In this document: in pieces, positions 12,211 through 44,586 of the stretch | How the letters are laid out: each line of letters opens with the position of its first letter | Numbering within the stretch: the first letter of the stretch is position 1 | DNA from: Lusitaniella coriacea LEGE 07157 | GTDB lineage: Bacteria; Cyanobacteriota; Cyanobacteriia; Cyanobacteriales; Spirulinaceae | Length of the DNA stretch: 64,000 bases | Reading direction: 5' to 3' | Assembly: GCF_015207425.1 (NCBI RefSeq) | Contig: NZ_JADEWZ010000004.1 | Span: 124,001 to 188,000 of the forward strand | Made by a program: the position numbers and the translations under genes | The notes under the pieces: model-generated | What the model saw: only the letters and a program-made list of their open reading frames with translations | Told to the model about the DNA's origin: nothing | The model's database searches: none

Positions 12211-12682
12211 AATATAGCCCCAAGCGCTCCCAGAGCAGCAGTGATCTGTCAGTTTCTAATTTGTGGGTAATTCTTTCTCCGCGTCTCCCCTAGGTTGGCT
12301 TGCGCCCTCTGAGGAAACCTCAGAGGCGTTCCGACCTCTCTCCGCGTCACCGTGTCAGCCTCAACGCACAAGCGCGAGGTTGACGAACCAGTAGTCAGGT
12401 GTCAGTCTCTTTAACTCTGTTGAATAAATTTGATAGTAATTTGTTGCCAAAGTCAATGGAAAACTTACCATTTATCAACATTTTTAGAGCCAGATTTTGA
12501 GGATGTAATTTCCTTCGTCAAGACTTAATAACTTAAACTCTCTCTTGATAGATTCTGTGCTACCCTTCTAGAGGAGTGAGCATTAAGATCGGAAGTATCC
12601 TTTTGTTTATTCAATCAACAGGCATATTTTCAAATCTAAAATCGCTTCACATTTCACACTCGTTTGATTTCGGAGATAGATC
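12211..12682. other. Divergent spacer upstream of the RRM gene, with a perfect hairpin
   Basis: 472 bp. At 12306-12326 a 9-bp perfect stem (CCTCTGAGG / CCTCAGAGG) encloses AAA. Around 12345-12358 there is a CCGTGTCA-type unit. The last 150-200 bp before the RRM start is AT-rich and probably contains its promoter and a long 5' leader, as reported for cold-regulated cyanobacterial rbp genes (established knowledge; not demonstrable here). No coding region seen. Confidence 0.6.
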
Positions 12683-12979
12683 ATGTCAGTTTACGTGGGC
12701 AACCTCGCTTACAGCGTTACTCAGGATGAGTTGAGTACAGTCTTCGCAGACTACGGTACTGTTAAGCGGGTTCACCTACCCACTGACCGCGAAACAGGTC
12801 GTCCTCGCGGTTTTGGTTTCGTTGAAATGGCTAGCGATGCTGAAGAAGACGCTGCTATTGAAGACTTGGATGGCGCTGAATGGATGGGTCGAGTGCTTAA
12901 AGTTAATAAGGCAAGACCCCGCGATGATAAGGGAGGTCGTAGCAGAAATCGGCAAGATCAATTCAAATCCAGATTTTAA
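12683..12979 (+). CDS. RRM-type RNA-binding protein
   Basis: Single RNA-recognition-motif protein of 98 residues, typical of the cyanobacterial Rbp family (RNA chaperones linked to cold response and mRNA localisation). RNP2 is VYVGNL at residues 3-8 and RNP1 is RGFGFVEM at residues 42-49. The C-terminus is short and basic (ARPRDDKGGRSRNRQDQFKSRF), without the long Gly-rich tail of some paralogues. The ATG follows CGGAGATAGATC, a reasonable ribosome-binding site. rpsU lies downstream on the same strand, an arrangement known for rbp genes in Anabaena-type cyanobacteria. Confidence 0.95.
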   Translation: MSVYVGNLAYSVTQDELSTVFADYGTVKRVHLPTDRETGRPRGFGFVEMASDAEEDAAIEDLDGAEWMGRVLKVNKARPRDDKGGRSRNRQDQFKSRF

Positions 12980-13422: not shown

Positions 13423-13573
13423 ATCCGACAGATAGGGTGGGTCGTCGGTACTCGATAAGAGCTTGTGCTTGACACCCAATTCCTTAAAAAAATATAATTT
13501 TCTCCTTAAAGCTGGGCGGGTTTGAAGTAATCGTGATGAGTTAAAATTCAGAACAGATTGACAAAACCCGCCT

Positions 13574-15649
13574 CTACTCGCTGCGACAAGGAACGGGAAT
13601 GATTTCCGTGTATTCAAATTGATTTGGACTGCGCTGCACTAAAGGATAGTTTACTCCTCCTAGTTCAATAAAATCTTCTTCGCAATCGGGTTTGGGAGAG
13701 TAGTAGGTTAAAACGTATTCTTTGCCAATGTGGTCTGCGGTTTCTTCTGCAACTTCGCCACGCCACTGGGTTTTAGTTGCTAAAATGATTAATTGATTGG
13801 CAAGTTGGGGAACAACTTGAGCCACCCGTCGGCGGTAAATTTCATCGAGACTGCCAAAAGGAGAATCCATAACAATGGGGAACGTGCTGCTATCAGGGCC
13901 CATCAAAGCATTCTTCTGACTCCACTCTCGCACGCGATCGATAATCCCACCAATAAAAGATAAACTGAGAATTTGATTTTCCCCTGTTGATGCGGCGACG
14001 GGAACTGCAATACCAGAAGTATTTTCCAATAGAGTCAATTCGTAGTCCGTACTCAATCGAGGACTGTAGGGTGTAAAGGAGATGGTGCTAAAGATTTCCT
14101 GAACGCGCTTTTCTAGGGAAAAACGGAATTGGCGTTCTAGGCGCGATCGTACCTCAATGAGGCGCTCAATTGCTTCTTTTGTGACTTGAATGCGTCGTTG
14201 GGTTAAAACTTGCTTTTCTTCTTTTAACTGGTGTTTGGCAATGCGTTTGACCTTTTCTTCAATCTCTCGATTGAGTTGTTCGATTTGTTGCTGATTTCCC
14301 CCTTGCTCTAAAATTAATCCTCGAATGGCTGTCTCTGTGACATCCAAGTTTTTTTGCAAGTTTTGAATGTTTTCGTCGGGATAGGTTCTAAGTTTGCGTT
14401 TAACTTCATCGAGTTGATTTTCTAAATCGGATAATTCCGAACGCCATTGATGAATGTTAGCTTGTTTTCGGTCGGTTTCTTGCCAGAATAGGGGAATTTG
14501 TTGCTCAATTTCAGCGGTTTGTGCTTCCAAGCGAATGACTGCTTCTTCGATATTTGCTATGCCTGCATTTTTCAGTAGCTTTTGTACGTTTTGGCGAGCG
14601 AGCATTCCTTCTTTTAATTCAGTTCCACAGATGCACTGTTGGCGTGCTAATAATTCTTGGATGAATTGTTGTTTTATCCCGGCTGGTAATTCCCCTTTTT
14701 GCCGAAGCTCGCTAATGATTACCTGAAACTTCCCCACAACATTGGGCAATAAAACGGTAAATCCTCGACTGGAAATGAGTTGTTTTATCTGTTGCTTTGC
14801 TTCGGCTAAGTTCTGTTGTATTGTGCGTTCTTGAATTTCTAATTGCTCTTTGAGCTTTTGTAATTCTTCTGAACCCCCTAATTCAATTAAACGCTGACTG
14901 GCAATCTGTTTAAGTTGTTCTTGGGTTTCTAATTCTTGGGTCATTTCTTGTTGGCGTTGAACTGCGCGATCGCGCGCCTGCTCCAATTTCCCTTGTTCCC
15001 CTAGTAACGTCTGGGTTTGAGCGTCTCCAATTTCTGCTAATTCATCCTGTAAAACGCGCATTACTTTTTTCAAATGATCGATCGCGCGATCTAAAACTTT
15101 CACTCCCAACAACTCTTTTGTATCTTCAGCAATTGTGTTTTTTCGACCATCAGAACGAAAAATACGATCGATTCGTTCCCCATCAAAAAAGAAATACTGA
15201 TGCAAACTTTCCGGCAAAATTCCTTGAACGACATCCGTTGGCTGTTGCGTTGGCGGATACCATCGTCCGTCATCCCCAGCAATCAACATAAAAAACTTAC
15301 TTTGACTATACTGAACGATTCCATCTCGATCTCGACAAGCATAACAGTGTCGTTTCAGTTGATAATTTTTATTCTCGTGTTCAAATGTAATTTCAGCCCA
15401 GCACTCAATCGAAGTTCCCACATTTGCTTCGGTAATTGCACGTTTGTTAATTAAAAACTCTGGGGACGAAAATGCAGCCGTGAATCGCTCGTAAAGAACC
15501 CAAGTAAAAGCATTCAGAAGTGTTGTCTTTCCCGCACCATTATTACCATGAATCATGGTGGTATTACGAGTTCCCGCAGCCAGGGCAATTTCTTGAGTTT
15601 TGCCGTAAAACTGACGAAAATTACACAGCCGAAGGGTATTGAGTTTCAT
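13574..15649 (-). CDS. dndD: DndD-like SMC/Rad50-type ATPase
   Basis: 691-residue ATPase of the SMC/Rad50 fold. The N-terminal half-ATPase has Walker A GNNGAGKTTL at residues 35-44. A long coiled coil spans about residues 170-500, interrupted at residues 339-342 by a CICG motif, the hook-like Cys pair seen in this family. The C-terminal half has the signature LSLSFIGGIIDRVREWS and Walker B FPIVMDSPFGSLDE with D595. This resembles DndD, the ATPase of DNA phosphorothioation/Dnd systems. dndB, dndC, dndE and an IscS-like dndA are all absent from the neighbourhood, so a sulfur-modification role cannot be assumed; DNA repair or defence are alternatives. It overlaps the upstream 57-residue gene by 4 bp, so translation is probably coupled. 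Confidence 0.85.
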   Translation of the reverse strand: MKLNTLRLCNFRQFYGKTQEIALAAGTRNTTMIHGNNGAGKTTLLNAFTWVLYERFTAAFSSPEFLINKRAITEANVGTSIECWAEITFEHENKNYQLKRHCYACRDRDGIVQYSQSKFFMLIAGDDGRWYPPTQQPTDVVQGILPESLHQYFFFDGERIDRIFRSDGRKNTIAEDTKELLGVKVLDRAIDHLKKVMRVLQDELAEIGDAQTQTLLGEQGKLEQARDRAVQRQQEMTQELETQEQLKQIASQRLIELGGSEELQKLKEQLEIQERTIQQNLAEAKQQIKQLISSRGFTVLLPNVVGKFQVIISELRQKGELPAGIKQQFIQELLARQQCICGTELKEGMLARQNVQKLLKNAGIANIEEAVIRLEAQTAEIEQQIPLFWQETDRKQANIHQWRSELSDLENQLDEVKRKLRTYPDENIQNLQKNLDVTETAIRGLILEQGGNQQQIEQLNREIEEKVKRIAKHQLKEEKQVLTQRRIQVTKEAIERLIEVRSRLERQFRFSLEKRVQEIFSTISFTPYSPRLSTDYELTLLENTSGIAVPVAASTGENQILSLSFIGGIIDRVREWSQKNALMGPDSSTFPIVMDSPFGSLDEIYRRRVAQVVPQLANQLIILATKTQWRGEVAEETADHIGKEYVLTYYSPKPDCEEDFIELGGVNYPLVQRSPNQFEYTEIIPVPCRSE

Positions 15650-15819
15650 TGCACCGTTTCTTTGATAATTGCAAGAATATCATCGTTAATATGACGAGGC
15701 GTTCGCTGATACAGCTTTTCCTTTTCAAGCTTCAAAACACGCTCGATAATCAGACGAACTTCAGTCGGCGCGCTTGTAATCGGTTCTTGTACGCCTTCGA
15801 CATCTGATTTCCGATTCAT
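15646..15819 (-). CDS. Small conserved-looking protein coupled to the DndD-like ATPase
   Basis: 57-residue ORF from ATG 15819 to TGA 15646-15648; its stop overlaps the ATPase start (ATGA overlap). The product is charged: an acidic/Ser N-terminus, then an amphipathic helix with VRLIIERVLKLEKEKLY, and HINDDILAIIKETV at the end. I do not recognise the family. The length, the helical pattern and the overlap suggest an accessory subunit of the SMC-like protein (inference). The real start could be a few codons inside. Confidence 0.7.
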   Translation of the reverse strand: MNRKSDVEGVQEPITSAPTEVRLIIERVLKLEKEKLYQRTPRHINDDILAIIKETVQ

Positions 15820-33075: not shown

Positions 33076-33309
33076 CGTCGCTCAGACGTTAGGAAAATAC
33101 AGCAATAGCTAGGAGTAGGAGGAGTAGGCTGGGGGATTGGGGCGACAAAAAAGTGCATAGCCCATCGCGCCTGAGAGATATAACAACAATAGTGGTGGGT
33201 TTAAACAACGACTGATACCCAATATATAAATTGCAAAACTTGCCCTTTCTTCAATCCAGATGTTTGCCATTTCTCCAAACTAATAACTGTTGTAGTGATA
33301 ACTGAAGTC
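33076..33309. other. Spacer upstream of the TPR-CHAT gene
   Basis: No gene seen. It contains CAGCAATAGCTAGGAGTAGG, weakly reminiscent of the TATAGC repeat family, then AT-rich sequence likely to hold the promoter. Confidence 0.4.
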
Positions 33310-35979
33310 ATGCTCCCTTCTCAACTCCTGAAATACCGATGGGCTAAGGGTTTAACCCTCATGCTCCTGCTGTCTGCCTTCTCTGTTCCAGTTTCCGCCG
33401 TGGCGAAGAACGAAAACAATCGCTTGGGGATTGATGCTGAATGGACTTTGAGGCAAGAGAGTGCAACGAATCGATCGATCCCAAAATTTGGCAGACTTGC
33501 CCAAATACAAACGGCGCAGGCTCGACGTTCTGAGGCATTAAGACTGAATGAAGAAGGAGATCGGTTATTGAATCGGGGTCAATCTCAAGAAGCCTTAGAG
33601 AAGTATCAACAGGCGTTGGCAATTATAGGAGAAACGAGGGAACGTCGAGGAGAGGGCATCATTCTCAACAACATGGGCGATGCTTACCGCAACCTGGGAC
33701 AGTACGAAGAGGCGATTGAATACTACCAACGCTCCTTAGCCATCCGCAAAGAGGTGCGCGATCGCGCCGGAGAAGTAATAACCCTCAACAATATAGGCGA
33801 TATTTACCGCCGTTTGGGAAAAAATTTAGAGGCAATCGAGTATCTCCAGCAAGCTTTAGCCATTGCCCAAGACGCGAACGATCTCGTTGGGGAAGGTGCA
33901 GTTCTCAACAACCTCGGCAATGTTTACCGCAACTTGGGAAGATATCCAAGGGCGATTCAATATCTCCAGCAAGCCTTAGCCATTGCCCAAGACGCAGACG
34001 ATCTTGTTGGGAAAGGAAGAACTCTCGACAATTTAGGTGTGGTTTATCACAGCCTGGGAGAATACCCAGAGGCAATCGAATACTATAATCGCGCTTTAGG
34101 CATCTTCAACAGACTCGGTAATCGGGCTGGGAAAGGGTCTACCCTTAACAATTTAGGTGTGGTTTACCGCAGCTTGGAAAAGTACCCAGAGGCGATTCAA
34201 TACTATCAACAAGCCTTAGCCATCCGCAAAGAAGTGCGCGATCGCGCTGGAAAAGCAGCAACCCTCAACAATTTAGCCTTAGTTTATAGCATTCAAGGAG
34301 AACATTGGGAGGCGATTGAATACTATCAGCAAGCTTTAGCCATCCTCAAAGAAGTGGAAGATCGCGCTGGAGAAGGGATAACCCTCGGTAATCTGGGCGG
34401 AGTTTATCACAATTTAGAGCAGTACCCAAAAGCCATTGAATACTACCAACAAGCTTTAGCGATTCACGAAGAGGTGGGGAATCTCGCTGGGAAAGGAACA
34501 GTCCTCAACAATCTGGGCGGAGTTTACCGGAGTTTAGGACAATACGACGATGCCGAACAAAATCTCTATGCTGCCGTTGAGGTTTTAAAATCCCTGCGAG
34601 ACGAAAAACTTGACGACCCCCATAAAATTTCTCTCTTTGAAACCCAAGCAGGTACTTACCAAAATTTGCAACTGACTCTGCTTGACCAAAATAAAACGAA
34701 TGCCGCCCTCGAAGTTGCCGAACAGGGACGCGCCAGGGCATTTGTCGAACTCCTTGCAAAACAACTCAACCCTCAATCTAACGAACCACTCAAAATCGAT
34801 CCCCCATCCATTGAAGACATCAAACAAATCGCCAAAGCACAAAATGCCACCCTCGTTCAATACGCGCTTATCTCCAACACTGCCCTCTACATCTGGGTCA
34901 TTCAACCGACCGGAGAAATTCACTTCCGTAATGTTGACCTGACACAATTCGATAGTTCTCTTGCTGAAATCCCGGAAATCGAGCGCCTCAAAGTGTTTGG
35001 TCTTCCCGGTGCAACTCAACCCAACCCATTATTCGCAACCCTCATACGAGAGGAAGGCAAATCAACTTTTACAACCTCACCACAAAACCAACGAAACCTT
35101 TACCAACTACTCATCGCACCCATCGCGGATATCCTCCCCACCAATCCCGAAGATAGAGTTATTTTTATTCCCCATCGATCTTTGTTCTATGTCCCTTTCC
35201 CCGCACTCCAAGATGAAGAATTGAACTACCTGATCGAAAAACATACGATCCTTACCGCACCTTCAATCCAGGTACTACAGCTCACTCGCGCGCATCGGCA
35301 ACGCATTGGGAGTGAGGAAATAGGAACCGGGGATGGGGAAGTTTTGGTGGTTGGCAATCCAACAATTCCAGACCTTTTGACCCAAGAACCTTACAACCTC
35401 CCACCTCTCAATTTTGCCGAAGAAGAAGCTCAATATATTGCTCAACTCCTTAAAACCAAAACTTTAATCGGTAGTGCTGCCACCGAAACCGAAGTGGTCA
35501 AACGCCTGCACTCCGCCCGAATTATTCATCTCGCCACGCACGGACTTCTAGGAACGAAAGATTTGCGCGATAAAGTTCCCGGCTTGAATATTCCCGGTTT
35601 GGTTGCCCTTGCGTCTTCTGAAGGAGACGATGGTTTACTAACCTCTGGGGAGATTGTCTCCATAACCCAAAATAATCCTCTAAACGCTGAAATCGTGGTT
35701 CTGAGCGCCTGCGGGACGGGTTTGGGCGATCTTTCGGAGGATGGAATCATTGGTTTATCTCGTTCTCTGATTACCGCAGGGGTTCCCAGTATTATGGTCT
35801 CGCTGTGGGATGTTTCCGATACAGCAACCGAAAAGTTGATGACAACGTTTTATGCCAACCGCTATGAGAAGAAGATGGACAAAGCGCAAGCGCTGCGACA
35901 GGCGATGTTGAGCATGAGGGTAGAATATCCCAGCCCTCAAGAGTGGGCGGCATTTACATTGATTGGCGAAGCGGAGTAG
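33310..35979 (+). CDS. TPR-CHAT protein (predicted caspase-like peptidase, secreted)
   Basis: 889 residues from ATG 33310 (the frame also allows GTG 33295). The N-terminus is a signal peptide (GLTLMLLLSAFSVPVSAVA). About nine tetratricopeptide repeats of 40-residue period follow (residues about 70-440; each has the form GxxLNNLGxVYRxLGxYxEAIEYYQQALAI). The C-terminal CHAT domain (about 590-889) carries the predicted His-Cys dyad: H744 in IIHLATHGLLG and C801 in VVLSACGTGLGDL. CHAT proteins are clan CD peptidases related to caspases and separase. The TPR part probably binds a partner or substrate. No obvious target gene is adjacent. Confidence 0.92.
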   Translation: MLPSQLLKYRWAKGLTLMLLLSAFSVPVSAVAKNENNRLGIDAEWTLRQESATNRSIPKFGRLAQIQTAQARRSEALRLNEEGDRLLNRGQSQEALEKYQQALAIIGETRERRGEGIILNNMGDAYRNLGQYEEAIEYYQRSLAIRKEVRDRAGEVITLNNIGDIYRRLGKNLEAIEYLQQALAIAQDANDLVGEGAVLNNLGNVYRNLGRYPRAIQYLQQALAIAQDADDLVGKGRTLDNLGVVYHSLGEYPEAIEYYNRALGIFNRLGNRAGKGSTLNNLGVVYRSLEKYPEAIQYYQQALAIRKEVRDRAGKAATLNNLALVYSIQGEHWEAIEYYQQALAILKEVEDRAGEGITLGNLGGVYHNLEQYPKAIEYYQQALAIHEEVGNLAGKGTVLNNLGGVYRSLGQYDDAEQNLYAAVEVLKSLRDEKLDDPHKISLFETQAGTYQNLQLTLLDQNKTNAALEVAEQGRARAFVELLAKQLNPQSNEPLKIDPPSIEDIKQIAKAQNATLVQYALISNTALYIWVIQPTGEIHFRNVDLTQFDSSLAEIPEIERLKVFGLPGATQPNPLFATLIREEGKSTFTTSPQNQRNLYQLLIAPIADILPTNPEDRVIFIPHRSLFYVPFPALQDEELNYLIEKHTILTAPSIQVLQLTRAHRQRIGSEEIGTGDGEVLVVGNPTIPDLLTQEPYNLPPLNFAEEEAQYIAQLLKTKTLIGSAATETEVVKRLHSARIIHLATHGLLGTKDLRDKVPGLNIPGLVALASSEGDDGLLTSGEIVSITQNNPLNAEIVVLSACGTGLGDLSEDGIIGLSRSLITAGVPSIMVSLWDVSDTATEKLMTTFYANRYEKKMDKAQALRQAMLSMRVEYPSPQEWAAFTLIGEAE

Positions 35980-41629: not shown

Positions 41630-42082
41630 ATGGGTTTATTTGATTCGTTTCGTAAATCGGGCAATCTCCAGGAAAACCAGATTACTCTGGGTCCTGCTGA
41701 AGCTTTTGCGGCTGTTATGCTGATTATCGTTGCGGCAGATGGCTACCTCTCCAATGAAGAAATTAGCTTGCTCAATACCGTTCTCGGTCGCATGAAACTG
41801 TTCCGCAGCTACTCTAGGGATGTGATGCAGCGGATGTTTGATAAACTCGGCAATTTTCTCCGAAGAGAAGGCAACGAAGCCTTGTTTAATGCGGCGATGG
41901 CAACTTTGCCTCACGATCTTTATGAAACCACGTTCGCGATCGCGACCGACCTGGTTCTTGCGGATGGCGAAGTCTCTCCCGAAGAGGAAGCACTGCTCGG
42001 AAGTCTTTGCAGCGCAATGGAATTGTCGCAGGATACGGTGAATCAAATTATTCAGGTCATGTTGATTAAAAACAAGGGCTAA
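41630..42082 (+). CDS. TerB-like protein
   Basis: 150-residue all-helical protein of the TerB/DjlA N-terminal superfamily. It has two acidic metal-binding helices: AVMLIIVAADGYLSNEEISL and TDLVLADGEVSPEEEALLGS, the paired DG-x-(S/V)-x-x-E-E pattern of the family. The ATG follows ACGAGGAAACAG. Its TAA overlaps the stop codon of the convergent hybrid kinase by 3 bp (CTAA at 42079-42082). The role is unclear; TerB folds occur in stress and membrane-associated proteins. Confidence 0.87.
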   Translation: MGLFDSFRKSGNLQENQITLGPAEAFAAVMLIIVAADGYLSNEEISLLNTVLGRMKLFRSYSRDVMQRMFDKLGNFLRREGNEALFNAAMATLPHDLYETTFAIATDLVLADGEVSPEEEALLGSLCSAMELSQDTVNQIIQVMLIKNKG

Positions 42083-44586
42083 ACTGTCAAGCGAGTTGCT
42101 TCGCTCAATTCCATGATGGTTTCAAATTGAAAATTGTCCGCTAGATTCTTTAACGCTGCTGCTAGGGTTGGGTGTTCTGGCGAAATTTGTTGAATTAACT
42201 CAAATAGTTCGCGATCGCTCCCTTGAGCAGCAGCATTGTAGAAATTATCAAGATAAGCAGAGTTTAGCTTCGGAAGACCCGCTTTAACTTGTTCGATTGG
42301 AGTTTTTCCGGAAGTTTCGGGGGCAATTCCGAAGGAATTTGCCGCAAAGCCATCTTTACAGTCTGTTTTCTCTTCGTAAAGATATTGAATCCCCAAATGT
42401 TCGCTAATCTTAGCTAATAGCTCTGGCTCGCGAAAGGGTTTGCGCATAAAGTCGTCGCACCCTGCTGATAAAATTGCGCTACGCTGTTCTTCAAAAACAC
42501 TTGCGGTTAGGGCAACGATTTTGGTGGTTTCTTCTCCTTCTTCTGTTGCTCGAATCTGTCGGGTTGCTTCATAACCGTTCATGACAGGCATTCGCATATC
42601 CATCCAAATCAAATGGGGCTGCCAACTCGACCAAATTTCTACCGCTTCTTCCCCGTTTTCTGCTTCTCGCACCTCAAACCCCAGAGAAACAAGCAGTTTA
42701 ACCAGGAGTAGGCGACTCTCAAACCGATCGTCCACGGCCAAAAGGCGATACTTGGGTTGGTTCGGGGCTAAACCGATGACTTTAGCTTGGGGGCGAATGC
42801 GCGTAATTTTTGTTGCATCCGCAAGGCGGACTTGAATATTGAATGCAAAGATACTGCCCTTATCTAATTGACTCTTAACGGTAATTTGACCGCCCATGAG
42901 TTGTACGAATTTTTGAGAGATCGCCAAGCCCAAGCCCGTTCCTTGTCGCGATTGTCGCCCCACTTCTGTCTGTGCAAAGACTTGGAACAGTTCCTCGATC
43001 TCATTGGAGGCAATTCCCGCCCCAGTGTCTTCGACTTCAAAAGCCAGGAGAACGGTTGAAGGGTCTGCTGCATCCGGGTTGCGGATTCCCACGCGCAACG
43101 TTACGCCTCCTTCTTTGGTGAATTTAATCGCATTACTCAAGAGGTTGAGCAAAACTTGGCGCAGTCTACTTTCATCGGTTGTAATGTATTGAGGAACTTC
43201 TGGCGCGCGATCGAAGAGTAGGATTAAGTTTTTCGATTCGGTTTTGATCTGAAGCATTGCTTCTAGGTCGTCGAGTAGGGCGAAAAAGTCAAAATGACTC
43301 TCGCTCAACATGATTCGACCTGCCTCGATTTTTGACATTTCGAGAATTTCATCGATCAATCCCAATAAATGCTCGCCCGCACGGTTGATAATCTTCAAAT
43401 TTTGTAAGTGTTCTTCTGAAAGAGAAGAATCGCGGTTCATCACTTGGGTAAAACCGAGAATAGCGTTGAGGGGCGTTCGCAACTCGTGACTCATGTTGGC
43501 GAGAAATTCACTTTTCGCGCGACTTGCTGCTGCGGCTTCTTCTTCTGCTCGTTTGCGCTCTTGAATTTCAATTTCCAAGCTGGTGTTGACTTTGACGAGT
43601 TCTGTGGTGCGCTGGCGCAATCCTTGGGTGGCTTCGTCAACCCGGAGTTCGAGTTCGCTGTAGGCTTCGCGTAGGGCGGATTCTGCGGTTTGGCGTTGCA
43701 ACTCAGCCGCCGCTCTAGCCGCAAAGACAGAGATGGTGGCTTTGGCGTTCTCGGCATCTTTTAGGGCGCGATCGTGACTCACGCAGAGGACTCCGAGGAC
43801 TTGGTTTTGTCCGTCTAGAAGCGGCACGCCGAGGTAGCATTCCATGCCCATGTCTTGTAGGGCGGTATCTTCGGGGAAGGATTGTTGTAGTTTATCGGGG
43901 TAATACTGCAATTGACCTTTTTGGATGACCTTCTCGCAAGGACTTCCGGCAATTTCGTATTGTATATTTTCGATCGCGCGATCGCTCGACCAAAAGGCTA
44001 AAGTTCTGAGCTGTTGGGATTGACGGTCGCTCAATGCACTAACAAAAGCATAACGAACGTCTAGTGCCTGGGCGAGGTGTTGCACCAGTGCGGGGAAAAA
44101 AGCTTTACCCGTCACAGAAGCCGTCCCTTTAATAATATTTTTCAGGGTTTGTTCGGCGTGGTGGCGTTCGATAATTTCCTGTTGCAGTTGTTGGTTGACA
44201 GCTTCGAGTTGTTCTGGGGTTTTGAGGGATAAAAATTGCGGGAGCAAAGTACTCAACTCCCATGCCGTGTAACACGATATCAGAGCGGTTGCTGCTTGTT
44301 CGATCCCAGAGAGCCAATAGGCAGGATACCAGAGGGTCAAAACTTCAAGAATATGCCCCAGACCGCACAAAATGATGAATGCGCCAAAAAGAATGAAAAC
44401 ATTGAAGAAAGGGAAATCCCGGCGCTTGTAGACGAAGTAGAGTAACATCGTCGGAATGGAAAAGTACGAGATCGCGATGAGTATATCGCTGACTACATGC
44501 AGTCCAACGAGAGGGGTTTGCCAAAGATAGCAGTGACCGTGTGGAATATAGCGATCGGCAGCAAAAAGGGTCTTGAATAGTTCCAC
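42079..44586 (-). CDS. Hybrid histidine kinase with an ethylene-receptor-type N-terminal domain
   Basis: 835 residues. Residues 20-110 form three TM helices of the ethylene-binding type. D34, Y41, I44, P45, I71, C74 and H78 occupy the same spacing as the seven residues needed for Cu(I)/ethylene binding in plant ETR1 (D25, Y32, I35, P36, I62, C65, H69). A GAF domain (about 155-300) and coiled coil follow, then HisKA with H367 (NMSHELRTPLNAIL), HATPase (LLNLLSNAIKFT, VEDTGAGI, GTGLGLAI), a receiver with phospho-Asp D663 (WMDMRMPVMNG), and a helical C-terminal tail. The GAF lacks an obvious bilin-binding Cys-His pair. It resembles Synechocystis Etr1 in its sensor but has a different domain order. 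Confidence 0.92.
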   Translation of the reverse strand: MELFKTLFAADRYIPHGHCYLWQTPLVGLHVVSDILIAISYFSIPTMLLYFVYKRRDFPFFNVFILFGAFIILCGLGHILEVLTLWYPAYWLSGIEQAATALISCYTAWELSTLLPQFLSLKTPEQLEAVNQQLQQEIIERHHAEQTLKNIIKGTASVTGKAFFPALVQHLAQALDVRYAFVSALSDRQSQQLRTLAFWSSDRAIENIQYEIAGSPCEKVIQKGQLQYYPDKLQQSFPEDTALQDMGMECYLGVPLLDGQNQVLGVLCVSHDRALKDAENAKATISVFAARAAAELQRQTAESALREAYSELELRVDEATQGLRQRTTELVKVNTSLEIEIQERKRAEEEAAAASRAKSEFLANMSHELRTPLNAILGFTQVMNRDSSLSEEHLQNLKIINRAGEHLLGLIDEILEMSKIEAGRIMLSESHFDFFALLDDLEAMLQIKTESKNLILLFDRAPEVPQYITTDESRLRQVLLNLLSNAIKFTKEGGVTLRVGIRNPDAADPSTVLLAFEVEDTGAGIASNEIEELFQVFAQTEVGRQSRQGTGLGLAISQKFVQLMGGQITVKSQLDKGSIFAFNIQVRLADATKITRIRPQAKVIGLAPNQPKYRLLAVDDRFESRLLLVKLLVSLGFEVREAENGEEAVEIWSSWQPHLIWMDMRMPVMNGYEATRQIRATEEGEETTKIVALTASVFEEQRSAILSAGCDDFMRKPFREPELLAKISEHLGIQYLYEEKTDCKDGFAANSFGIAPETSGKTPIEQVKAGLPKLNSAYLDNFYNAAAQGSDRELFELIQQISPEHPTLAAALKNLADNFQFETIMELSEATRLTV

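What the first reader, a model, noticed from the sequence alone, without database searches (positions are those of the whole stretch)
13574..15819. DndD-like ATPase in a two-gene unit with a 57-residue protein, no other dnd genes
The SMC-type ATPase has intact Walker A/B and a CxCG hook, and overlaps (ATGA) a tiny helical protein gene. dndB, dndC, dndE and pbe/dptFGH-type genes are absent on both sides. It may be a minimal DNA repair or defence module, distinct from phosphorothioation.
Basis: partly seen in the sequence, partly recalled or inferred. Interest (0 to 1): 0.62.

Follow-up and report, generated by a model that had tools for sequence, protein, structure and literature searches.

The report
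Scattered cyanobacterial sulfur-DNA defence genes
The two genes look like a small helper and an ATPase of a known sulfur-DNA (phosphorothioate) antiviral system, whose other genes were overlooked because in this cyanobacterium they lie at distant chromosomal places although they are still mostly inherited as a set.

Summary
The ATPase (13574-15649, -) is not DndD but PbeC, the CxC-hook ABC ATPase of PbeABCD. The 57-residue gene (15646-15819, -) is PbeB: a profile of cyanobacterial copies finds the PbeB-position ORF of an archaeal operon (E 4.8e-10). The rest of the system is elsewhere in the same genome: PbeA helicase (contig C15), PbeD (C12), DndC (C6), DndD-DndE (C8). Over 292 cyanobacterial genomes the six genes searched come and go largely together (68 carry all six, 82 any); among 29 all-six genomes of at most 10 contigs they form one cluster in 9 and 5-6 places in 9. 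So the unit is most likely the pbeBC part of a dispersed Dnd-Pbe system, not distinct from phosphorothioation. The own PbeA lacks the HKD nuclease domain. The families are known. New in my searches: the scattered, co-retained, mostly HKD-less form, and pbeABCD in 69 of 73 dndC genomes of a phylum whose Dnd is described as restriction-less. Against: two deep-branching genomes have pbeABCD with no dndC or dndE found, and dndC has moved between lineages. Function is inferred, not tested.

The parts
13574..15649 (-). pbeC: CxC-clade ABC ATPase with coiled coil, 691 aa
   Evidence: PADLOC PbeC PDLC02753 992.2 bits over the whole model, best DndD model 166.6; NCBIfam DndD TIGR03185 169.2 bits, below its cut-off 245.85; hook and tree
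15646..15819 (-). pbeB: 57-aa two-helix protein, start of the two-gene unit
   Evidence: homologues upstream of pbeC in 80 of 80 named loci; profile finds PbeB-position ORFs in other operons; AF2 model, helices 19-36 and 45-56, mean pLDDT 80.8
15646..15649 (-). ATGA overlap of pbeB stop and pbeC start
   Evidence: sequence; same 4-base overlap in 72 of 80 named loci
15524..15547 (-). Walker A, GNNGAGKT (residues 35-42)
   Evidence: coordinates worked out by hand from the ORF
14627..14635 (-). CxC hook motif CIC (residues 339-341)
   Evidence: coordinates worked out by hand from the ORF
13976..13990 (-). ABC signature STGEN (residues 554-558)
   Evidence: coordinates worked out by hand from the ORF; the name of the motif is recalled
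13841..13882 (-). Walker B and D-loop stretch, FPIVMDSPFGSLDE (about residues 590-603)
   Evidence: invariant D595 and P597 among 22 sequences; coordinates worked out by hand; the name of the motif is recalled

Best explanation
The unit is pbeB-pbeC of a DndCDE-PbeABCD phosphorothioate defence system whose genes have become scattered over the chromosome. Shown by sequence: DndC, DndD-DndE (the phosphorothioation proteins), PbeA and PbeD are encoded at four other places of the same genome, and the set is kept or lost largely together within the window's order of Cyanobacteria. Inferred from the archaeal system (PMC6459918) and from the analysis in PMC10853773: DndCDE put sulfur marks on host DNA; PbeC, an ABC ATPase expected to pair through its CxC hook, together with PbeB (two short helices, perhaps a clamp or assembly part; my guess) and PbeD (a DndE-type DNA-binding partner according to PMC10853773), scans DNA; the PbeA helicase acts on unmarked DNA and stops its replication. 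Because the PbeA here has no HKD nuclease domain, the most likely action is translocation or a roadblock without cutting, in keeping with the intact viral DNA seen in the archaeal experiments.
For: Identity: PADLOC PbeC 992 bits; CxCG hook in 12 of 12 PbeC and 0 of 6 DndD examined; tree puts the protein with PbeC of Ruegeria, Natrinema and others, support 0.85. PbeB: in 1883 frames of nine loci the seven best hits of the cyanobacterial profile are all PbeB-position ORFs; the archaeal Natrinema one has E 4.8e-10, the last three 0.023, 0.05 and 1.1. Order pbeA, small gene, ATPase, gene of 143-185 aa in plasmid operons of two haloarchaea, Ruegeria and Lactiplantibacillus and in G094 and G081. Own genome: PbeA TIGR04095 644.7 bits (cut-off 600), PbeD TIGR04062 186.1 (cut-off 74.25); DndC 693.2 (cut-off 290.4); DndD 663 (245.85) and DndE 140.5 (71.85). 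Co-occurrence in 292 genomes: pbeC with dndC 69, pbeC only 4, dndC only 4, neither 215; within the order 68, 2, 4, 9, Fisher 1.1e-7. In G002, G066 and G207 the small gene lies 0.3-0.6 kb behind pbeA while pbeC is 129-132 kb away or on another contig. Archaeal precedent: dndCDEA-pbeABCD hinders virus replication, with pbeB, pbeC and pbeD each necessary (PMC6459918: passages; sections 9, 10, 11).
Against: No function was tested. The species are related, so the Fisher values are inflated; only a handful of independent losses carry the signal. The pairing is not universal: G094 and G081, deep in the phylum, have a full pbeABCD operon with no dndC or dndE at the thresholds used; G070 and G159 (drafts) and G170 (E limit 1e-60; it has a DndC-like gene of 27% identity) have pbeC without a standard dndC; G211 and G080 have dndC-dndE without pbe. 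PMC6459918 likewise reports that 320 of 553 PbeAC lack nearby dndCD. The dndC tree does not follow pbeC beyond species descent. PbeA here lacks the HKD domain. In the tree Haloprofundus PbeC falls on the DndD side (0.94), so PbeC is not cleanly one clade there. My profile comparison did not recover the DndE-PbeD relation (probability 1.4%). PbeB homology outside Cyanobacteria is significant only for Natrinema.
Confidence: 0.8

Rival explanations
1. One reading: a stand-alone minimal repair or defence pair (DndD-like ATPase plus small partner) unrelated to phosphorothioation.
For: None of the dnd or pbe genes searched for lies nearby in the window; in G070 and G159 no dndC was found; pbeABCD operons without dndC or dndE exist in G094 and G081.
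Against: Co-occurrence of the pair with pbeA, pbeD, dndC and dndE, physical clustering with them in other cyanobacteria, PbeC and PbeB identity.
Confidence: 0.05
2. The Pbe genes were domesticated in Cyanobacteria: without the PbeA nuclease domain, and inherited vertically, they now serve PT-linked chromosome upkeep, regulation or oxidative-stress tolerance rather than defence.
For: pbeC follows rpoB closely (20 of 26 splits, r 0.87); no mobile-element gene among the 18 of 45 window ORFs of 150 aa or more that I scanned; no HKD part in the best PbeA of 72 of 76 genomes; PMC8569181 proposes an antioxidant origin of cyanobacterial Dnd (passages).
Against: Whole or nearly whole sets are missing in several lineages (G051, which keeps pbeA only; G133; G147 and G183; G014, G076, G093), and broken remnants occur (G011, G060, G268), unlike housekeeping genes; the archaeal system itself hinders virus without visible DNA cutting.
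Confidence: 0.12
3. Decaying remnant of a former PbeABCD operon, no longer working.
For: Genes scattered, HKD domain absent, no PF14072 (DndB) match; true remnants exist in other genomes.
Against: The parts in the own genome are open and match their family models over nearly their whole length, except for the HKD part of PbeA; conserved residues are kept; complete scattered sets persist in many genomes.
Confidence: 0.03

Closest known systems
PbeABCD (archaeal DndCDEA-PbeABCD; CxC ABC-ATPase-DndE systems)
   Same: PbeB-PbeC pair, CxC hook, PbeA helicase and PbeD (TIGR04062) in the same genome, DndCDE present
   Different: pbe genes at three places instead of one operon (five with the dnd genes); PbeA without the HKD domain; pbeC and pbeD follow the rpoB tree, that is, mainly vertical inheritance
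DndD (TIGR03185)
   Same: ABC ATPase with coiled coil; aligns over 708 columns at 25% identity with the own genome's true DndD
   Different: below the family cut-off, has a CxC hook that the six DndD examined lack, not next to dndE; the true DndD-DndE pair is on contig C8
Clustered cyanobacterial Dnd-Pbe loci (for example L042, L043, L045; PbeC of L042 is 83% identical to that of Amazonocrinis nigriterrae)
   Same: orthologous genes in the order pbeA-pbeB-pbeC-pbeD-dndC-dndD-dndE, with other genes between
   Different: one cluster instead of five places; several have DndB-like and HNH genes between
Rad50/SMC-type ATPases (Mre11-Rad50, Wadjet JetABC, Lamassu LmuACB chains)
   Same: best Foldseek matches of the model, from E 5.8e-17, at 9-20% identity in the 50 rows shown
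   Different: low TM-scores from a low-confidence model (pTM 0.41); no Mre11-like gene beside it in the ORFs scanned

Membership tests
PbeC / CxC-clade ABC ATPase | CxC zinc hook in the coiled coil, absent from DndD (PMC10853773) | tested here: met
   CICG at 339; CxCG in 12 of 12 PbeC and 0 of 6 DndD; both cysteines invariant in 22 sequences
PbeC / CxC-clade ABC ATPase | sequence score against PbeC above DndD | tested here: met
   992.2 against 166.6 bits
PbeC / CxC-clade ABC ATPase | gene linked to its DndE-type partner (PbeD) | tested here: not met
   not adjacent in this genome; PbeD is on another contig; it is near pbeC in other cyanobacteria
PbeB | 50-67 aa ORF directly upstream of pbeC, homologous to PbeB of other operons | tested here: met
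   (Natrinema E 4.8e-10; weak or not significant for the five other non-cyanobacteriales operons tested)
PbeABCD system | all four genes in the genome | tested here: met
PbeABCD system | four genes in one operon | tested here: not met
   pbeA, pbeBC and pbeD on three contigs
PbeABCD system | PbeA with HKD (PLD) domain | tested here: not met
   own PbeA match starts at profile position 235 of 682; no HKD match in the genome (the latter with positive controls)
PbeABCD system | PT-dependent antiviral activity | not testable with these tools
   needs experiment
DndD | score over TIGR03185 cut-off and pairing with DndE | tested here: not met
   169.2 against 245.85; the only dndE is on another contig
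DndCDE phosphorothioation in this genome | dndC, dndD and dndE over family cut-offs | tested here: met
   693.2, 663 and 140.5 bits
PbeD as a DndE relative | similarity to DndE | tested here: inconclusive
   hhalign probability 1.4% on small alignments; the relation is taken from PMC10853773

The most novel reading that the evidence does not exclude
A prokaryotic immune system has become a scattered, mainly vertically inherited chromosomal trait of a large part of a cyanobacterial order: seven proteins made from up to five or six unlinked places work together without the nuclease domain of the mobile versions, so that cyanobacterial phosphorothioation, described as restriction-less and antioxidant, is in fact a non-cutting self/non-self system.
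Probability: 0.35. Interest if true: 0.72.

Novelty: new variant of a known kind. Interest (0 to 1): 0.57.

Why it matters
Cyanobacterial Dnd has been called incomplete, disordered and without restriction part, and an antioxidant origin was inferred (PMC8569181, passages; taken up in PMC12707154, passages). One paper (PMC8546630, passages) did read a type III enzyme beside dndBCDE in Microcoleus as restriction. In my sample 69 of 73 genomes with dndC carry pbeA, pbeB, pbeC and pbeD; of these 69, both pbeA and pbeC lie within 10 kb of dndC in 16, pbeC in 35, any pbe gene in 42, and none within 20 kb in 27 (contig breaks in drafts add to the last figure). So surveys by neighbourhood see the link in part only. 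It makes the question 'defence or antioxidant' directly testable by deleting small unlinked genes, and warns that defence-system callers that demand adjacency undercount scattered systems. It also offers natural PbeA proteins without the HKD domain to test how PbeABCD hinders viruses without visible DNA cutting.

Tried and rejected
Rejected: DndD identity of the ATPase (below cut-off, hook, tree). Rejected: chance small ORF. Not dismissed: the weak small-gene hits in G002, G066 and G207 (22-25 bits), because they lie just behind pbeA. Led nowhere: PDB sequence searches (no match for P0001 or the PbeD alignment, two weak unrelated ones for PbeB); hhalign PbeD-DndE; Foldseek of the PbeC model, Rad50/SMC-like only; promoter/terminator scan, 4 and 2 sites against 4.6 and 3.2 expected. 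DndB was sought with PF14072 only and not found in the own genome. The first HKD search had no control, so it was repeated over 32 genomes. dndD was not searched phylum-wide; dndE stands for the pair. DndFGH and SspBCDE were not searched for.

Rows kept or dropped before counts: of the 77 pbeA genomes I dropped G280 (match only to the N-terminal part of a 1066-residue frame) and the second copies of G253, G070, G116 and G197 and the other long-frame hits. The pbeC count keeps G060 (fragment with a stop) and G151 (residues 1-410); because of its E limit of 1e-40 it misses the divergent PbeC of G094 and G081. The pbeD count keeps G011 and G268 (remnants with stops); the dndC count keeps G058 (partial). 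In one search 29 of 30 genomes were used (G131 had no rpoB match). Contig counts are the rounded ones of the search tables.

Full report
CHECK. The two ORFs, the ATGA overlap, Walker A, signature and CICG hook are present as described. The window is G000:C4:124001-188000 of a draft cyanobacterial genome of 5.86 Mb in 114 contigs, 99.96% complete. The only other sampled genome of its family, G116, has a PbeC identical to that of Spirulina sp. CS-785/01. Neighbours are ordinary chromosomal genes: rpsU and an RRM protein on one side, lgt and cobM on the other.

WHAT THE LARGE PROTEIN IS. The best PADLOC model is PbeC, 992.2 bits over 648 positions; the best DndD model gives 166.6. NCBIfam DndD is missed (169.2 against a cut-off of 245.85). 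All 12 PbeC proteins examined, from Cyanobacteria, Ruegeria, Lactiplantibacillus and haloarchaea, have a CxCG hook (11 CICG, one CVCG) and none of 6 cyanobacterial DndD has; in a tree the window protein groups with ten other PbeC (support 0.85) apart from DndD, but one haloarchaeal PbeC (Haloprofundus) falls at the base of the DndD side (0.94). PMC10853773 (passages; sections 16 and 13) describes this CxC clade as sister to DndD, identifies PbeC with it, and states that it is universally linked to a DndE partner. PMC6459918 notes that PbeC resembles an SMC protein of Hydrococcus rivularis (24% identity); a homologue of the window gene with 67% identity is in that species (L081), possibly the same protein; I did not check.

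WHAT THE SMALL PROTEIN IS. Other pbeABCD operons read pbeA, a 50-67 aa gene, the ATPase, and a 143-185 aa gene; on a Pseudanabaena plasmid the last gene stands a few genes further on. A profile of 30 cyanobacterial copies, run on 1883 frames from nine loci, ranks PbeB-position ORFs as its first seven hits: three cyanobacterial, Natrinema (E 4.8e-10), then G094 (0.023), Ruegeria (0.05) and G081 (1.1); Haloprofundus and Lactiplantibacillus are not separated from background. AlphaFold gives two helices (19-36, 45-56) behind a low-confidence start (mean pLDDT 80.8). In 80 of 80 named homologous loci it precedes pbeC, 72 with the 4-base overlap (80 is the cap, which confirmed 308 relatives).

WHERE THE REST IS. 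The own genome encodes PbeA at C15:120736-122061 (TIGR04095, 644.7 bits), PbeD at C12:37338-37802 (TIGR04062, 186.1 bits), DndC at C6:156404-157738 (693.2 bits), and DndD-DndE at C8 (L041:10483-12465 and 12459-12875) directly behind psaA-psaB. pbeA lies about 10 kb from a contig end, the others at least 33 kb from one, so the set is spread over five places, though the draft cannot exclude that pbeA is linked to another contig end. PF14072 (DndB) has no match. DndC sits beside an AIPR-family gene and a RecQ.

CO-OCCURRENCE. In the same 292 cyanobacterial genomes: pbeB 72, pbeC 73, pbeD 75, dndC 73, dndE 74, pbeA 77, or 76 after dropping G280 (each with its own E limit). All six are in 68 genomes, any in 82. 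pbeC and dndC: both 69, only pbeC 4, only dndC 4, neither 215. The 14 incomplete genomes: G211 and G080 have dndC-dndE only; G058 a partial dndC only; G051 pbeA only; G011 and G268 broken pbeD only; G060 a broken pbeC only; G097 lacks pbeBC in a 280-contig draft; G008 lacks dndE; G070, G159 and G170 lack a dndC match; G094 and G081 count as pbeA only, yet by inspection they hold a complete, divergent pbeABCD operon (PbeC about 25% identical to that of G193) without dndC or dndE. So in the window's order the sets go together, but deeper in the phylum Pbe can stand without Dnd. The species are related, so p-values over the phylum mean little; within the order (83 genomes) the pbeC-dndC table is 68, 2, 4, 9 (Fisher 1.1e-7), still not corrected for descent.

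SCATTERING. Among 29 genomes with all six genes and at most 10 contigs, the genes fall (20 kb rule) into 1 place in 9, 2 in 7, 3 in 2, 4 in 2, 5 in 8 and 6 in 1. The clustered order in L042, L043 and L045 is pbeA-pbeB-pbeC-pbeD-dndC-dndD-dndE with other genes between. G002, G066 and G207 split between pbeB and pbeC; there pbeB stays behind pbeA. Over the whole sample pbeA is within 1.5 kb upstream of pbeB in 34 genomes. In 29 genomes pbeC follows the rpoB tree (20 of 26 splits; r 0.87), pbeD too (14 of 26; 0.84), dndC less (8 of 26; 0.57). In the dndC tree the window's genome groups with G172 and G245 (support 0.94), G245 being close to Anabaena and Nostoc relatives by its PbeC, whereas pbeC and rpoB put it elsewhere; its dndC may have been replaced from outside.

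PBEA WITHOUT NUCLEASE. In 72 of 76 genomes the best PbeA match used begins at profile position 209 or later of 682, that is, without the N-terminal HKD part; four have it (G193, G170, G094, G081), and four of the 72 have a second copy with it. A search with the HKD part of G193 over 32 chosen genomes hits 15: all eight genomes with such copies; in the other seven the hits lie in other long frames (five genomes, 1035-1430 aa), a separate 286-aa frame (G255) and a broken one (G105). Seventeen, the window's genome among them, have none. PMC6459918 reports that PbeABCD hinders virus replication while viral DNA stays intact, and that pbeA is only partly required; PMC10853773 argues for cleavage because the vast majority carry HKD. 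The cyanobacterial form is a natural test case.

RELATION TO PRINT. PMC8569181 (passages) reports Dnd in Cyanobacteria as incomplete and disordered without dndFGH, infers an antioxidant origin, and holds no occurrence of 'pbe' in its main text. PMC8546630 (passages) reads a type III enzyme beside dndBCDE in Microcoleus as restriction, notes dndBC and dndDE at least 40 kb apart in other strains, and suspects loss of function there. PMC2442094 (passages) found dndC-D-E but no clear dndB in cyanobacteria. PMC12707154 (passages) calls solo modifiers most frequent in Cyanobacteria. NCBIfam and PADLOC already name the families, and a PADLOC PbeC model fits this lineage closely, so the parts are known. 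In six paper searches of an open-licence library (listings and the passages named here) I saw no report of a scattered, co-retained pbeABCD in Cyanobacteria; supplements and subscription papers were not searched.

VERDICT. Known family membership, but an unusual genome-wide arrangement with a clear test. Identity of the pair 0.95; functional link to phosphorothioation 0.85; antiviral action 0.7; non-cutting mechanism 0.5. All four are my estimates.

Noticed in passing
L040:7402-13419 (G000:C6): dndC stands between an AIPR/AbiU-like gene and a RecQ helicase; its tree position with G172 and G245 suggests replacement of dndC from outside.
   Followed up: partly
L041:5729-12875 (G000:C8): dndD-dndE follow psaA-psaB directly; in L056 (G159) the pbeB-pbeC unit also lies beside psaA-psaB.
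   Followed up: no
L072 (G011), L071 (G060), G268:C1:991786-991995: Broken remnants of pbeD or pbeC, in L072 near pieces of an HNH gene of the same kind as in intact clusters.
   Followed up: partly
L042:8596-9573 and relatives: HNH nuclease gene in five of the 20 loci compared (L042, L043, L045, L046, L054); could stand in for the missing HKD domain in some lineages. Not searched for in the window's genome.
   Followed up: no
L064 and L065 (G094, G081): Compact pbeABCD operons without dndC or dndE found, preceded by two genes of about 381 and 928 aa that I did not identify.
   Followed up: no
L054:3302-4507: G170 has a divergent DndC-like protein (27% identity) beside dndE instead of standard DndC.
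   Followed up: no
window 13469-13498: Perfect sigma-70 consensus (TTGACA, 18, TATAAT) on the + strand in the gap between rpsU and pbeC, pointing into the antisense of pbeC; the number of such sites in the region is at chance level.
   Followed up: no
window 42079-44586 and 33295-35979: Ethylene-receptor-like hybrid histidine kinase, and a TPR-CHAT protein.
   Followed up: no
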